From: Jannaschia maritima
Lineage (GTDB): Bacteria > Pseudomonadota > Alphaproteobacteria > Rhodobacterales > Rhodobacteraceae
Assembly: GCF_030973515.1 (NCBI RefSeq)
Contig: NZ_JARGZA010000001.1
Location: forward strand, 62,001 to 126,000
DNA: 64,000 nucleotides
Direction of reading: 5' to 3'
In this document: positions 52,078 through 57,357 of the stretch, piece after piece
Position numbering within the stretch: the stretch's first letter is position 1
Layout of the letters: every line of letters begins with the position of its first letter
Program-made: the position numbers and the translations under genes
The notes under the pieces: generated by a model
Databases searched by the model: none
Told to the model about the DNA's origin: nothing
What the model saw: only the letters and a program-made list of their open reading frames with translations

Positions 52078-52962
52078 TCAAAATGTATCCAGACTGGTCG
52101 AGGTCAGTTCGCTAACGTGATCGACTGTTCTTGGGCCAGGCAGTGCCACGATGCCGGCATCCTGCTCCCGCACCCATGCTAGTGCCGCGCCCGCAAGCGA
52201 CGTACCGTTCTCTTGTGCCAGAGCTTCAATCTGATCACGCGCCTTGGAGAACTCCGGCGCTTCATCTGTTGCGGCCGATCTCTGGCGGTAGTCGTCATCG
52301 GCGTAGATGCGCCTCGGCCTAACCACTGCGCCGCGTGCTAGTGGCGAGTACGCGAGGAAGGCCATGCCGCGTTCGGTAAATGATGTTGGCGCTTCATCGA
52401 CGTCCAAATCGTCGGATAGCGGGGAGAATGCGTTCTGCACACATGCAATGGCAACGTTTCGCGCGACCTCCCCGGCTCGCGACGCCCCCGATCTAGATAA
52501 GCCGAAGCGATCGACCTTTCCCTCCGCTATCAAGAGCTTAATCATTCCCGCCACTTCCGCATCGTCGACTTGGGGGTCGGGTCGGTGCTGGAAGAGGAGA
52601 TCGATCCGTTCGCTGTTCAGACGACGCAGAGATGCATCCACGGAGACACGGATCGCATCCGGGCGGCTGTTAGGGCGAAGGGTGCCGTCGGTGCCGGCTT
52701 CCAGCCCGAATTTTGTTGCGATGAGGCAATGCTTGTGACCTGCAAGGGTACATCCCAAGAGACGCTCGTTCTCTCCATCGGTATAGAGTGGTGCCGTGTC
52801 GAAGAGACGAAATCCCATGTCCACGGCCGAATTGATTACGGCTCGAGCATCGCGCGGGTCGATTTTGCCGTAGAGCCCGGTCAGCGCCATGCATCCGATG
52901 CCTATCCGACCGGGACCGGCTAGATCTAAGGCATGGGCTGCGGCGTCCTTTGCCTGCGTCAT
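52078..52962 (-). CDS. Aldo/keto reductase (island operon, gene 4)
   Basis: 294 residues, TIM-barrel NADPH-dependent oxidoreductase. The catalytic tetrad is D55, Y60, K84 and H126 (FDTAPLYTDGENE, IATKFGL, LLFQHRPDP). It is last in a four-gene leftward operon, three bases after the P-loop gene. Substrate unknown. In context it may reduce an aldehyde or keto group on a modified nucleoside or small molecule (inference). Lower GC than the core genes. Confidence 0.85.
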   Translation of the reverse strand: MTQAKDAAAHALDLAGPGRIGIGCMALTGLYGKIDPRDARAVINSAVDMGFRLFDTAPLYTDGENERLLGCTLAGHKHCLIATKFGLEAGTDGTLRPNSRPDAIRVSVDASLRRLNSERIDLLFQHRPDPQVDDAEVAGMIKLLIAEGKVDRFGLSRSGASRAGEVARNVAIACVQNAFSPLSDDLDVDEAPTSFTERGMAFLAYSPLARGAVVRPRRIYADDDYRQRSAATDEAPEFSKARDQIEALAQENGTSLAGAALAWVREQDAGIVALPGPRTVDHVSELTSTSLDTF

Positions 52963-52965
52963 CTC

Positions 52966-53538
52966 TCACCGCCGCTCGAAGGCTGCCATCGTTAGTGCGA
53001 AAGCCTCAGCCGCCCTGTCATGCCGCAACACATGAGCTTCGGTGGCATACGTCTTCACGAGATCGATGATAGTTCGGTCGACTTCGCGGCGGTACTCTTC
53101 ATCCGTGTCGCGGCCAGAAGCAGTAGGAATGGTAGGATCCAAATGTGTCACGAAAAGCAGGTCGTAGTCGGGCAGCCACGACAGGCAGAGCGCCGTCAGA
53201 CGTTCCATGCGATCGGCCTGGACATGGCGGTCAGTGACGCGCAACGCCGCGATTAGATACCCCAGTGCGTCCAGGATCGGGCGATCGACCAGGATGATAT
53301 CGTGTTCTGGCGATGCGGCGGCTTCCGCTCGGATCGTCTCGCCCATCATCCAGGCCGTGCTCTCGAAGGTGTGGTGGCGCAGGATTGGGAGGCCGATCGA
53401 GCGAGCTACCCGGGCATCTGGATGGACGCGCGCAGCAGAGCAGCCGAGGACTTGAAACCGTGCTTCCAAAGCATCGAGGAACGTCGTCTTTCCTGTCGAA
53501 TGCGTACCGGCCACGCCGATTTTGAACGGTCGCCTCAT
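52966..53538 (-). CDS. P-loop ATPase / nucleoside-kinase-like protein (island operon, gene 3)
   Basis: 190 residues resembling the AAA_28/NadR-kinase group. Walker A GTHSTGKTT is at residues 11-19, with a DILVDRP-type acidic motif (IILVDRPILDALGY) near 82 and a two-residue DYDLLFVTHLDP switch near 128. Such proteins phosphorylate nucleosides or small metabolites. The ATG overlaps the exonuclease stop (ATGA), so translation is coupled. The overlap with the exonuclease gene suggests both act on the same nucleotide-type substrate (inference). Confidence 0.75.
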   Translation of the reverse strand: MRRPFKIGVAGTHSTGKTTFLDALEARFQVLGCSAARVHPDARVARSIGLPILRHHTFESTAWMMGETIRAEAAASPEHDIILVDRPILDALGYLIAALRVTDRHVQADRMERLTALCLSWLPDYDLLFVTHLDPTIPTASGRDTDEEYRREVDRTIIDLVKTYATEAHVLRHDRAAEAFALTMAAFERR

Positions 53539-54122
53539 AGAAGCCTGCCCTGCCTAACGTCCAGTACGTCAGCGGCGTTCAGTTCGGCCCTGCGTGCAGG
53601 TACCGCGATGGGCTCCATTAGGTGCTGGAACAACAACGCGCAGGCCGCGGCATCGTAGAGTGCGGAATGGCGAGACGCGCCATCCGACAGACACGCAGCC
53701 CCAACGTGCAGATCGTACGCATCAATCAATAGGGTCAGCCCATGATTGCGCGCCGGAGCGAGGCGCCGGGTCATGCGCAGGGTGTCATATGCGGCCGGCG
53801 GGTGCCATCCGGGAAAGGCACGTTGGAGAAGCCTGAGGTCCACCGACACGTTGTGCCCAAGAATGGGCCTGTCTGCGAGCGTCTCCATTACGTCCGAGCG
53901 TATCGCCTCGACAGGAGGTGCTTCGGCGACATCTGCATCTGTCAGGCGGTGGATGCGTGTGGCCTGCGGCGTGATGCATCGATCAGGTCGGACCCGCCAA
54001 TGCCGGACGCATCCTGTCGGCACGATGCCGCAAATCTCCACAAGCGCTAGATCGACGATCTCGGGCGGAGACGCCCCGCTGCCTTCGAGGTCGACCGCCC
54101 AAATGTATAGGCTTTCGTCCAT
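53535..54122 (-). CDS. DEDDh 3'-5' exonuclease (island operon, gene 2)
   Basis: 195 residues of the DnaQ/RNase T superfamily. The four acidic residues and the histidine are visible: D11 and E13 in AVDLEGSG, D95 in GHNVSVDLRLL, and H152 and D157 in RHSALYDAAA. It would degrade single-stranded DNA or RNA from 3' ends. No polymerase domain is attached. Begins three bases after the radical SAM stop and overlaps the P-loop gene by four. Confidence 0.85.
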   Translation of the reverse strand: MDESLYIWAVDLEGSGASPPEIVDLALVEICGIVPTGCVRHWRVRPDRCITPQATRIHRLTDADVAEAPPVEAIRSDVMETLADRPILGHNVSVDLRLLQRAFPGWHPPAAYDTLRMTRRLAPARNHGLTLLIDAYDLHVGAACLSDGASRHSALYDAAACALLFQHLMEPIAVPARRAELNAADVLDVRQGRLL

Positions 54123-54125
54123 GTA

Positions 54126-55286
54126 TCACGTTCCCCAGCCTTGCTCCGCGCGGCCATGACGTCCCTCAAGATGGGGATGCGAGCGGTCGTGAACCTGGAA
54201 TCCCGTGGCATGCTGGATGGCGTATCTCTGCTGTTCCGTACTTCCCGTCACGGTCAGATGCCCCGAGGCCATGACGGTGCCGTCCGGGTTCAGCCCGACG
54301 CGGTGGATCCATCGCTCGATCTCAGTTCGCGATGGATTTCGGTGGGCATCCGAGCACCGGCCCACCTGCGCGGCGGGGCAGATATCGCAGATTGCCGGAA
54401 TGCCGTAGTGACCGTTGTAGTCCGGCAGCCCGTGTGCGTACGCGACCGCACAGGAGGTCTTGCGGAACAAGGGGATGGCGTTCTCACCGGTCCCAAAGCC
54501 GTCGAGAATGCGGCGCTCTAAGTCTTGAGGGAGGATCTTTCTGCGGGCGACGTCGTCATAAAGGTCCGACACACCGGCGGACCGTAGGTAGTCCCTGATC
54601 TCTTCGCGGTGGAACAAGCCGGTGAAGACGCAGGCATCGGCGAGCTGCGCCAAGTGCTGCGCCTGTTCGATCCGCGCCCGGTCATCGTTGAGGCCGGCGA
54701 CGATGGGACGCCAGTAGAGCACCGAACGCGTCCGGCGTTTCGAGGATTGCAACGTGCGAAGGGTCTCCGAGGCGACCCCGCTGTCGATCGGTTCGATGCG
54801 GGGATCGGTTATGCCCGACCACGTAACGAGGACGGTGACCTTGAGGTTGCAGAGAGCCTCAAGGCGGGCAACGTCGGCCTCCATAATCTTCCACCGGGTG
54901 ATGACAAGCACGTGATTCTTAAAGCCCTGCCTGTCGAGAAGCTGTAAGGTTGCAAAGAGGTGGTCCTTTACGCGCGGCAGGAAAGGGTCCGTCGCCCTAT
55001 TAAAGATCTGAATTGGAGTCTTGTCGCGAACGAAATAGGGGTGGGCCGTGAGACGATCGACCGCGTCTGCGTCCGGCATCACCAGATGTGGACGCTTCAT
55101 CTCGTAGTTGCCGAAGAGGTGGCGCACGCAGTAGCCGCAGTCGAGCGGACAGCCGACAATGTGATTCAGGCTCAGGCCCGACTTGCGATATTCTACCACG
55201 TCGCGAAGGGCGGGATCGAGGTCGGACGGCGCGGGTCGCAAGCTGGAAGTGGCGTAGGCGAGATTAGGGGGTTCAGGAAATGGCAT
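54126..55286 (-). CDS. Radical SAM protein, SPL-like (island operon, gene 1)
   Basis: 386 residues. The radical SAM cluster ligands are C46, C50 and C53 in GCPLDCGYCVRHLFG, a CX3CX2C motif. The next segments (IQIFNRATDPFLP, HVLVITRWK, VTVLVTWSG) resemble the spore-photoproduct-lyase-like branch. Near the C-terminus, CDICPAAQVGRC adds three closely spaced cysteines that could bind a second Fe-S cluster. Starts at ATG 55286 after GGGAAGGA. Substrate unknown; association with an exonuclease and a P-loop kinase points to nucleic acid or nucleotides. Confidence 0.82.
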   Translation of the reverse strand: MPFPEPPNLAYATSSLRPAPSDLDPALRDVVEYRKSGLSLNHIVGCPLDCGYCVRHLFGNYEMKRPHLVMPDADAVDRLTAHPYFVRDKTPIQIFNRATDPFLPRVKDHLFATLQLLDRQGFKNHVLVITRWKIMEADVARLEALCNLKVTVLVTWSGITDPRIEPIDSGVASETLRTLQSSKRRTRSVLYWRPIVAGLNDDRARIEQAQHLAQLADACVFTGLFHREEIRDYLRSAGVSDLYDDVARRKILPQDLERRILDGFGTGENAIPLFRKTSCAVAYAHGLPDYNGHYGIPAICDICPAAQVGRCSDAHRNPSRTEIERWIHRVGLNPDGTVMASGHLTVTGSTEQQRYAIQHATGFQVHDRSHPHLEGRHGRAEQGWGT

Positions 55287-55339: not shown

Positions 55340-55364
55340 ACCGTAAGCCGATCACCGTAAGCCG
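55340..55364 (-). promoter_or_regulatory. 11-bp direct repeats upstream of the radical SAM operon
   Basis: ACCGTAAGCCG occurs exactly twice (55340-55350 and 55354-55364) with a 14-bp period, 54-78 bases upstream of the operon's first ATG. The position suits an operator or activator site. No regulator gene is adjacent, so the binder is unknown. Confidence 0.5.
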
Positions 55365-55909
55365 GTCTAGGTCTATTCCAAAACACAGTTAGCCTCTGCT
55401 TTTCGTGGGTTCGGCTCACCAATGCAGTCGCTGGTGCCTGATCCTACCGTAATACCTAGCTCGTTTCCCGCATTGAAGCGTCTCCAGTACAGCTTCGCGT
55501 GTCGTCGAACGTTGCTGTGGGACATTATCTGCTTCCAAGAACGTCCGCTTCGGGCCAGAAGACGTATTCACAGTCAAGGACCCCTAAGAGCGGTCTACCT
55601 GAAGATCTAGTCACTCTCCTACACCGGCCGCCGGGTCCGGCGGCTTGGATGTCGAACAGTCTGAGTATCCATCCGTCCGGCCCACTTTTCGGATTGGCGA
55701 CAAGCATGCCTCTGCTCGACTGATCCGCCTGACACATCGCCCTACATCCTGTCCGCGCCGGGGCAGACCTACGCAGTCGAAGGCCGCGAGTGCGCCGCCT
55801 GACCCTCGGCCCGCGACGCGGCCTGCGCCCTACCGGACCACCCCCGCACCGAACGTCTTAACGACGCAACCCCGGCGCAACGTGCGGTGCCGATATGCCG
55901 ATGCGTATG

Positions 55910-55942
55910 TACGGGGGGTGTACGGGGGGTGTACGGGGGGTG
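55910..55942 (+). repeat. 11-bp G-rich tandem repeat, three perfect copies
   Basis: TACGGGGGGTG is repeated three times without change and starts a fourth time (TACG). G-runs of six at regular spacing could form a quadruplex-like structure. It lies about 100 bases from the 3' end of tRNA-Val. Confidence 0.85.
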
Positions 55943-56045
55943 TACGCCCGATTTTTCTGATCGCGCCGAAAATCGCCGTCGGCGTTCACCCGGCCTTAAC
56001 CGCGCGGCCCATCGCGATTCGTCGTCGTGGGAAACGGAGGGGGAA

Positions 56046-56166: not shown

Positions 56167-57357
56167 TCAGGTCAGCACGAACCGGTCCCGCTTGCCGATC
56201 CACAGCCTGCGGCCCGGCGCGGCGTCGACCGCCGCGTTGGGGTCGTCCGCCTTGTCGCCGTCCAGCCGCACGCCGCCGCCCGCGATCAGCCGCTTCAGCG
56301 CGCCGCGGCTCTGATCCGGCTGGGCGGCCGCGCACAGGTCCAGCAGCGTGGCACCGTCCGTCAGGCCGTTTACGGGCAAGGGCACGTGGTCCGCCTCCGA
56401 CGGCGCCTTCTTCTGCACGGTGCGCTCGAAATGCGCGCGGCCCGCATCGCCCGCGCCGGAACCGTGGAACCGGTCGGTCACGTTCGCGGCCAGGGCCTTC
56501 TTGATCCCCATCGGGTTCTCGCCCGCTTCAAGAGCGTCCGTCATCCCCTTGATTTCGCTCGCGTCGAACGTCGTCGTCAGCTCCAGGTAGTTCGGCAGCA
56601 TCGCGTCCGAGATCGACATCAGCTTGCCGAACATCTCCTCCGCCGGGTCGGTCAGGCCGACATAGTTGCTCTTGGACTTCGACATCTTGTCGGACCCGTC
56701 CAGGCCCACCAGCAGGGGCATCGTCATCACCGCCTGGCCCGGCTTGCCCGCGGCCTCCTGCAGGTGGCGGCCCATCAGGTTGTTGAACAGCTGGTCCGTG
56801 CCGCCCAGCTCGATGTCCGCGTCGATCATCACGGAATCGTAGCCCTGCAGGATCGGGTACAGCAGCTCGTGCAGGTGGATGGGCAGCCCGTCGGCGAACC
56901 GGCGGCGGAAGTCGTCGCGCGTCATGATCTGCGCGACCGTGACCTGAGACATCAGCCGGATCGTGCCCGCCAGGTCCAGCCGTCCGTGCCACTCGCTGTT
57001 GCGCCGCACCTCGATCCGGTCGGTGTCCACGACGCGGCCCAGCTGGGCCAGGTACGTCTCCGCGTTCGCGGCGATCTCGTCGGCCGACAGCGGCGGTCGC
57101 ATCTTGTTGCGCCCCGTCGGATCCCCGATGGAGGCGGTGAAGTCGCCGATGATGACGACGATCGTATGGCCCGATTCCTGGAAATCGCGGAGTTTCTGCA
57201 ACACCACCGCATGCCCCAGATGCAGATCCGCCGCCGTAGGATCAAACCCCAACTTCACCCGCAGGGGGCGGCTTTCGGCTTCTGCCAGGGCCAGCTTCTC
57301 CTTCAGGCCGTCCTCCGGCTCCATGATGGCGACGTTGGACAGCAGGCGGTACAGCAT
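56167..57357 (-). CDS. tyrS: Tyrosyl-tRNA synthetase
   Basis: 396-residue class I synthetase. The HIGH motif appears as HLGH (AADLHLGHAVVLQKL) and the KMSKS motif as DKMSKSKSN. A C-terminal S4 RNA-binding domain (about 335-395) begins after the variable linker. The sequence is of the TyrZ-like type common in alphaproteobacteria. It lies between tRNA-Val and tRNA-Ser on the same strand. Confidence 0.95.
   Translation of the reverse strand: MLYRLLSNVAIMEPEDGLKEKLALAEAESRPLRVKLGFDPTAADLHLGHAVVLQKLRDFQESGHTIVVIIGDFTASIGDPTGRNKMRPPLSADEIAANAETYLAQLGRVVDTDRIEVRRNSEWHGRLDLAGTIRLMSQVTVAQIMTRDDFRRRFADGLPIHLHELLYPILQGYDSVMIDADIELGGTDQLFNNLMGRHLQEAAGKPGQAVMTMPLLVGLDGSDKMSKSKSNYVGLTDPAEEMFGKLMSISDAMLPNYLELTTTFDASEIKGMTDALEAGENPMGIKKALAANVTDRFHGSGAGDAGRAHFERTVQKKAPSEADHVPLPVNGLTDGATLLDLCAAAQPDQSRGALKRLIAGGGVRLDGDKADDPNAAVDAAPGRRLWIGKRDRFVLT

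What the first reader, a model, noticed from the sequence alone, without database searches (positions are those of the whole stretch)
52078..55286. Undescribed four-gene system: radical SAM, DEDDh exonuclease, P-loop kinase and aldo/keto reductase
The genes are tightly coupled (gaps of 3, overlap of 4, gap of 3), all have intact active-site residues, and the block has lower GC than its core surroundings beside a tRNA gene. The combination of a nuclease, a nucleoside-kinase-like ATPase, a radical SAM enzyme with extra C-terminal cysteines and a reductase suggests modification or salvage of a nucleotide, possibly as a defence system. I know of no named system with these four parts.
Basis: inference. 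Interest (0 to 1): 0.75.

Follow-up and report, generated by a model that had tools for sequence, protein, structure and literature searches.

The report
Mobile nucleotide-modifying gene set, likely antiviral
A compact, mobile set of four enzyme genes (a radical enzyme, a proofreading-type nuclease, a nucleotide kinase and a reductase) recurs across several bacterial phyla and probably makes an altered nucleotide that poisons viral copying, though nobody has tested it.

Summary
In detail: four tightly packed genes (52078-55286, minus strand) encode a radical SAM enzyme (rSAM), a DEDDh exonuclease, an AAA_28 P-loop kinase and an aldo/keto reductase (AKR), with intact catalytic residues, in a low-GC patch. 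It is a real, mobile module. Of 101 loci with the rSAM, 100 have the exonuclease beside it, 72 the AAA_28 kinase, 50 the AKR. Another 21 carry a dTMP-kinase-family protein instead of AAA_28; none has both, eight neither. In 26 loci (actinobacterial where named) a relative of CMP 5-hydroxymethylase plus NDK is added; four alphaproteobacterial plasmids carry a SAMHD1-like HD protein. The accessory enzymes point to nucleotide chemistry, probably pyrimidine.

Non-actinobacterial copies sit among defence genes (125 neighbours match 220 PADLOC models; 102 control proteins match 3). Actinobacterial neighbours (120) match only 3, so defence is supported in one branch only.

Best reading: synthesis of a modified nucleotide antimetabolite, working like viperin/CMPK2 or the thmABC thionucleoside cluster without shown membership in either, with the exonuclease as self-protection. 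Product and function are inferred. Searches of PADLOC 2023, NCBIfam and ten queries of open papers gave no named system with these parts.

The parts
54126..55286 (-). radical SAM enzyme (P0001, 386 aa), SPL-like partial barrel, CxxxCxxC motif C46/C50/C53 plus C-terminal C279, C300, C303, C311 (putative second Fe-S cluster). An in-frame GTG start at 55355 would give 409 aa
53535..54122 (-). DEDDh 3'-5' exonuclease (P0002, 195 aa)
   Evidence: Pfam RNase_T; PADLOC DEDDh 6e-26 and PDC-S48 1.1e-19; residues
52966..53538 (-). AAA_28 P-loop kinase (P0003, 190 aa), fold like thymidylate kinase, NadR kinase domain and deoxynucleoside kinases
52078..52962 (-). aldo/keto reductase (P0004, 294 aa), Asp55/Tyr60/Lys84/His126 kept; optional member (50 of 101 loci)

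Best explanation
The genes form a mobile module that makes a modified, probably pyrimidine, nucleotide. Proposed steps: the rSAM abstracts a hydrogen from a nucleotide and alters its sugar or base; the small kinase (AAA_28, or a dTMP-kinase-family protein in other lineages) raises the nucleotide to the diphosphate; a host or linked NDK makes the triphosphate; the AKR, where present, reduces a carbonyl intermediate; the triphosphate is used by viral polymerases and stops or corrupts copying; and the DEDDh exonuclease, always coupled to the rSAM, removes the wrong nucleotide from host strands or hydrolyses the product, giving self-protection. In actinobacteria a CMP 5-hydroxymethylase relative and NDK extend the pathway; in some rhizobial and Roseibium/Labrenzia plasmids a SAMHD1-like protein may take the protective role. 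Shown by computation: the module, its coupling, the kinase exchange, the enzyme families and the setting. Inferred: substrate, product, order of steps, antiviral effect and self-protection.
For: Coupling: 100/101 rSAM loci carry the exonuclease (98 of 100 within 60 nt), and pairwise distances co-vary (Mantel r 0.87 exonuclease n=90, 0.68 AAA_28 n=63, 0.87 AKR n=40; highest of 500 permutations 0.11, 0.11, 0.25). Kinase exchange: 72 loci AAA_28, 21 dTMP-kinase-like, 0 both, 8 neither; three of the replacements pass the NCBIfam dTMP kinase cut-off (105.5, 97.8, 104.3 against 83.25). The AAA_28 model (pLDDT 94.7) fits thymidylate kinase Z 16.7 (2.8 A, 170 residues) and NadR Z 16.3, tied, and dCK Z 15.3. 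Hydroxymethylase: L103 protein against CMP 5-hydroxymethylase (5jnh) E 4e-71, best thymidylate synthase 7e-13; of 26 relatives, residues matching MilA Cys155, Lys133, Asp186, His216 are kept in 26, Ala176 in 24 (Gly in 2), Glu68 in 25 with one gap (numbering from PMC5175136 passages). HD protein: 2o6i E 2e-43, SAMHD1 E 3e-20. Defence setting outside actinobacteria: and plasmid annotations. Precedents: thmABC, an rSAM, an AbmG-like nucleoside kinase and an NTPase that alone gives resistance, makes 4'-thiothymidine (PMC12691670, section 7 read), and AbmG appears among the fold matches of our kinase (8j5f, E 1.2e-5); viperin works with the adjacent kinase CMPK2 (PMC8801973 passages); a viral ExoN exonuclease can excise the viperin product from RNA (PMC9415739 abstract).
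Against: No activity has been shown and no substrate is fixed: the hydroxymethylase residues point to cytidylate, the replacement kinase family to thymidylate, and these two partners never occur together (0 of 21). Actinobacterial neighbours show no defence enrichment (3 PADLOC families in 120 of 541 ORFs). The AKR is missing from half of the loci; 25 of 101 have only exonuclease and AAA_28 among the partners tested. The rSAM fold also fits peptide- and cofactor-acting rSAM enzymes: PFL activase Z 16.3 is tied with SPL 15.2-15.6, viperin and viperin-like entries are lower at 13.1-13.8. One locus (Nostoc plasmid, L095) has no exonuclease found. The window's copy has no other known defence gene between clpP and tRNA-Val. 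The defence control is one genome, and related loci share neighbours.
Confidence: 0.42

Rival explanations
1. Nucleotide repair or salvage. The SPL-like rSAM reverses or converts a damaged pyrimidine, the exonuclease excises damaged ends, the kinase re-phosphorylates the released nucleotide and the AKR detoxifies carbonyl damage; the module protects mobile elements or hosts from genotoxic stress.
For: SPL, which acts on thymine in DNA, gives the longest structural alignments (251-255 residues, Z 15.2-15.6); the rSAM-exonuclease pair is the most constant part (100/101); dTMP-kinase-like replacement.
Against: Does not explain the hydroxymethylase plus NDK block (26 loci) or the defence surroundings. 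The rSAM has four C-terminal cysteines kept in 57/57, which SPL lacks as far as I recall.
Confidence: 0.2
2. A secreted nucleoside antibiotic or signal used between bacteria, as thmABC makes 4'-thiothymidine; phage defence would be secondary.
For: thmABC precedent; actinobacterial copies lie beside regulators and 'natural product' domains (DUF6415) and not among defence genes; a distant sister rSAM with the same C-terminal Cys region sits beside a MurA-like enolpyruvyl transferase and an aldolase in two Streptomyces plasmids, recalling the nikkomycin NikO/NikJ pair (recalled, not tested).
Against: No transporter belongs to the conserved set in the neighbour clustering; non-actinobacterial copies are in defence-rich surroundings.
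Confidence: 0.2
3. A system that modifies nucleic acid strands directly (DNA or RNA modification with an exonuclease effector), with the kinase as an activator or end-processing enzyme.
For: rSAM enzymes such as RlmN act on RNA and match the model (Z 14.2-14.5); an exonuclease is always present; the plasmid neighbourhoods include DNA methylases in some loci.
Against: NMP-kinase exchange, NDK, hydroxymethylase and dNTPase-like partners point to free nucleotides; no partner in the conserved set looks like a strand-recognition protein.
Confidence: 0.1

Closest known systems
thmABC 4'-thiothymidine cluster of Photorhabdus (PMC12691670)
   Same: small gene set of an rSAM, a nucleoside kinase and a nucleotide-hydrolysing self-resistance protein; stands in different surroundings in different species
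   Different: third protein is an NTPase, not a DEDDh exonuclease; reported in Enterobacterales and Vibrio. Relatedness of ThmA/ThmB to P0001/P0003 was not tested because their sequences were not to hand
viperin with CMPK2 (and prokaryotic viperins)
   Same: rSAM next to a nucleotide kinase of the dTMP-kinase family (family of CMPK2 recalled); antiviral chain-terminating nucleotide in viperin's case
   Different: P0001 gave no PADLOC match and no viperin model among the 21 NCBIfam families matched by 57 relatives; structural fit lower than SPL and PFL activase; extra C-terminal cysteines; obligatory exonuclease
Spore photoproduct lyase and SplB-like rSAM families (TIGR04470, Rv2578c, PA0069)
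   Same: nearest by fold length and by weak sequence matches
   Different: all matches far below the curated cut-offs (18.9 against 410 bits for the window protein); C-terminal four-Cys region
MilA CMP 5-hydroxymethylase (mildiomycin)
   Same: linked 'thymidylate synthase' of 26 loci keeps the cytosine and ribose determinants
   Different: Tyr218, which in MilA holds the sugar, is Asn in 17, Gly in 8, Cys in 1; not encoded in the window's module
SAMHD1 / anti-phage dNTPases
   Same: HD protein in four plasmid copies
   Different: accessory only; absent from the window's module

Membership tests
viperin family | sequence match to viperin profile models | tested here: not met
   P0001: 0 PADLOC families at E<=0.1; 57 relatives match 21 NCBIfam families at E<=0.1, none named viperin. 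That both libraries hold viperin models is recalled
viperin family | viperin-like fold | tested here: inconclusive
   viperin and viperin-like entries Z 13.1-13.8, about 204-217 residues; PFL activase 16.3 and SPL 15.2-15.6 higher
viperin family | makes a ddh-nucleoside triphosphate from CTP or another NTP | not testable with these tools
   needs enzyme assay
spore photoproduct lyase | SPL profile match above cut-off | tested here: not met
   no NCBIfam model of that name matched and none reached a cut-off; Pfam only Radical_SAM. Presence of an SPL model in the libraries not checked
radical SAM superfamily | CxxxCxxC motif and partial barrel | tested here: met
   C46, C50, C53 57/57; model pLDDT 88.4, rSAM matches
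DEDDh exonucleases | three exonuclease motifs with His-Asp pair | tested here: met
   the acid at position 95 is E in 19 of 46, D in the window
dTMP kinase (for P0003) | TIGR00041 match | tested here: not met
   no NCBIfam family for P0003; fold resembles it
dTMP kinase (for the replacement kinase) | TIGR00041 above cut-off | tested here: met
   3 of 3 proteins given; PF02223 99.7 bits for L061
thmABC-type thionucleoside clusters | homology of rSAM and kinase to ThmA and ThmB | not tested
   sequences not available here
anti-phage defence systems in PADLOC-DB 2.0.0 | match of the proteins to a named multi-gene system | tested here: not met
   rSAM, kinase, AKR 0 families; exonuclease only generic DEDDh and candidate PDC-S48
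anti-phage defence systems in general | protects against phage | not testable with these tools
   context only

The most novel reading that the evidence does not exclude
The antimetabolite is made from nucleic acid itself: the rSAM alters the terminal nucleotide of a strand, much as SPL works on DNA, the always-linked exonuclease releases the altered monophosphate, and the kinase (with NDK) turns it into a polymerase-poisoning triphosphate, so that damaged or invading nucleic acid feeds its own inhibitor. This would explain why the rSAM and the nuclease are inseparable (100/101) while kinase, AKR, hydroxymethylase and dNTPase-like protein vary. The loss of the sugar-holding Tyr218 in 26 of 26 linked hydroxymethylases would fit a nucleotide with an altered sugar.
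Probability: 0.12. Interest if true: 0.92.

Novelty: new variant of a known kind. Interest (0 to 1): 0.72.

Why it matters
If right, this is a second, non-viperin radical SAM route to antimetabolite nucleotides, carried on mobile elements in at least Alphaproteobacteria, Actinomycetota, Cyanobacteria, Acidobacteriota, Nitrospirota and Myxococcota (record titles), with a built-in proofreading-type nuclease. It would give new nucleotide analogues and a paired resistance enzyme, and it makes directly testable whether bacterial exonucleases serve as immunity to self-made chain terminators. The pattern of partners (rSAM, dTMP-kinase-family enzyme, DEDDh nuclease, SAMHD1-like protein) echoes interferon-induced genes viperin, CMPK2, ISG20 and SAMHD1 (a recalled analogy, not homology of the whole).

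Tried and rejected
Viperin membership: rejected on sequence, left open on mechanism. Solved-structure sequence searches with P0001, P0003 and the rSAM profile gave nothing useful; the kinase profile gave only P-loop stretches. rSAM and kinase profiles are unrelated, as expected. Integration at tRNA-Val: no convincing repeat, no empty site. Phage origin: no match in 50,697 phage records; three IMG/VR contigs carry it, but I did not establish that they are viral. A phylum sample found only the window's own genome among 398, but its first look scored few candidates per genome, so it is a weak estimate; the order sample found 8 of 292 at E<=0.001, of which three (own, 65% and 62% identity) are orthologues and five are weak partial matches. 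Papers: ten searches; passages of PMC10853773, PMC11706625 and PMC10732462 gave no such system. The library lacks most subscription papers and preprints.

Caveats on counts: the 101 loci include the window's own copy (L001) and at least one likely duplicate (L003 and L015); 91 remain at more than 5% rSAM difference. The five weak rSAM hits L004-L008 were dropped before the 101. ORFs were called by script; some kinases are split or short (L064, L067, L072), so the 8 'neither' may include broken genes. The PADLOC test used 125 of 166 neighbour ORFs (25 of 26 loci represented), the control 102 of 153 ORFs from 12 of 15 stretches of one genome, cut to fit the tool's size limit, and the actinobacterial test 120 of 541. 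One protein can match many related PADLOC models, so 220 is not a count of proteins; the listing shows, for example, GajB in 3 members, PDC-M30B in 4, PDC-M41B in 4, DRT helicase in 3, PtuA, ThsB and type IIG enzyme in 2 each. Four DUF3800 proteins upstream of the rSAM are among the 125, and which members gave the PDC hits is not shown.
Full report
What is there. Four minus-strand genes, 55286 down to 52078, are coupled with gaps of 3 nt, a 4-nt overlap and 3 nt. They encode an rSAM enzyme, a DEDDh exonuclease, an AAA_28 P-loop kinase and an AKR. The block has GC 0.59-0.63 against 0.65-0.73 around it and lies between clpP and a tRNA-Val gene. Only the window's own genome among 20 of the genus has the rSAM, so it is an acquired block; an attachment repeat or an empty site was not found.

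It is a conserved module. The rSAM query found 112 relatives in one-genome-per-species contigs, of which 80 were kept, 39 plasmid records, of which 24 are at about 50-61% identity, and three IMG/VR contigs. Over 101 loci with a strong rSAM match, the exonuclease is present in 100, AAA_28 kinase in 72, AKR in 50. rSAM alignment: 57 sequences, mean column identity 60%, seven invariant cysteines. Distances of the partners co-vary with the rSAM, as expected of genes that travel together.

The kinase slot can be refilled. In 21 loci without AAA_28, a protein of about 215-225 aa stands in or near the same place; three tested pass the dTMP kinase cut-off. No locus has both kinases and eight have neither. 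AlphaFold2 models of the window's kinase (pLDDT 94.7) fit thymidylate kinase and NadR equally well (Z 16.7 and 16.3), and deoxynucleoside kinases and AbmG are also among the matches. The job of this slot is therefore most likely phosphorylation of a nucleoside or nucleotide.

Other partners. In 26 loci, actinobacterial where an organism is named, a 'thymidylate synthase' and an NDK stand near the rSAM. The tested protein is nearer to CMP 5-hydroxymethylase (E 4e-71) than to thymidylate synthase (E 7e-13). Of 26, all keep the residues equal to MilA Cys155, Lys133, Asp186 and His216; Ala176 is kept in 24; Tyr218, a sugar contact, is lost in all 26. In four alphaproteobacterial plasmids an HD protein follows, nearest to EF1143-type and SAMHD1 dNTPases. 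DUF3800 stands upstream in 8 loci.

The rSAM. The model (pLDDT 88.4) fits PFL activase (Z 16.3) and SPL (Z 15.2-15.6, longest alignments) and less well viperin and viperin-like enzymes (13.1-13.8). Weak profile matches are to SplB-like families. A distant sister family in Streptomyces plasmids (26% identity) shares the first three cysteines and C279, C303 and C311 in the alignment, with a further cysteine near C300, and in two plasmids stands beside a MurA-like enolpyruvyl transferase and an aldolase. That is reminiscent of nikkomycin/polyoxin genes (recalled), where an rSAM acts on a uridine nucleotide; I could not test it.

Setting. In alphaproteobacterial plasmids the module lies near genes annotated as a CBASS-like set (S. 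meliloti), dGTPase and TIR, Shedu and ABC-three-component parts, N-6 DNA methylase, ABC-three-component parts. PADLOC scans at E<=1e-15: 125 of 166 neighbour ORFs of non-actinobacterial loci match 220 models; 102 of 153 control ORFs match 3. Against the defence reading, 120 of 541 ORFs around actinobacterial copies match only 3, and these copies sit with regulators and NDK/hydroxymethylase genes. So the same chemistry may serve defence in one branch and another purpose, such as antibiosis, in the other.

Mechanism. The simplest reading that uses all parts is synthesis of an antimetabolite nucleotide with built-in protection. Two published precedents have the same logic: thmABC (rSAM, AbmG-like kinase, protective NTPase; section 7 of PMC12691670 read) and viperin with CMPK2 (passages). 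An ExoN exonuclease can remove the viperin product from RNA (abstract), which makes the exonuclease-as-immunity idea plausible. All chemical steps here are inferred. Cytidine and thymidine indications conflict, and no assay exists.

Novelty. PADLOC gives only generic hits for the exonuclease, NCBIfam gives no family above cut-off for the rSAM or kinase, and ten full-text searches of an open-access library gave no paper describing this set. I rate it a new variant of a known kind, rSAM-based nucleotide antimetabolite makers, at 0.42 confidence in the mechanism.

Noticed in passing
window 55825-55955: A stretch of about 120 nt, including a tandem TGTACGGGGGG run, matches about 30 other places on many contigs of the same genome and some in congeners: an interspersed repeat.
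   Followed up: no
window 56167-57357: This tyrS type is found at E<=1e-90 in only 3 of 20 genomes of the genus (own included), so the tRNA-Val/tyrS side may itself be variable or of a second TyrRS type.
   Followed up: no
L160:2730-6227 and L162:1773-5182: Sister rSAM family with the same C-terminal cysteine region beside a MurA-like enolpyruvyl transferase and a class II aldolase on Streptomyces plasmids: possible uncharacterised nucleoside pathway.
   Followed up: partly
L019:5439-7058 (-): A 540-aa protein with a dCMP/cytidine deaminase domain stands beside the module in Agrobacterium arsenijevicii; it recalls anti-phage dCTP deaminases (the comparison is recalled).
   Followed up: no
L003, L011-L015, L017, L092, upstream of the rSAM: A DUF3800 protein of about 382 aa directly precedes the rSAM in 8 of 101 loci.
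   Followed up: partly
L034, L053, L056, L061, L067 and others, upstream of the rSAM: In actinobacteria a run of small gene, DUF6879 protein and HTH-DUF5753 regulator precedes the rSAM (DUF6879 in 19, HTH-DUF5753 in 28 of 101 loci).
   Followed up: no
L106:9105-9986 (+): A protein annotated as MazG-like follows the AKR in a Streptomyces plasmid; relatives stand near the rSAM in 12 of 101 loci, but Pfam finds no domain.
   Followed up: partly
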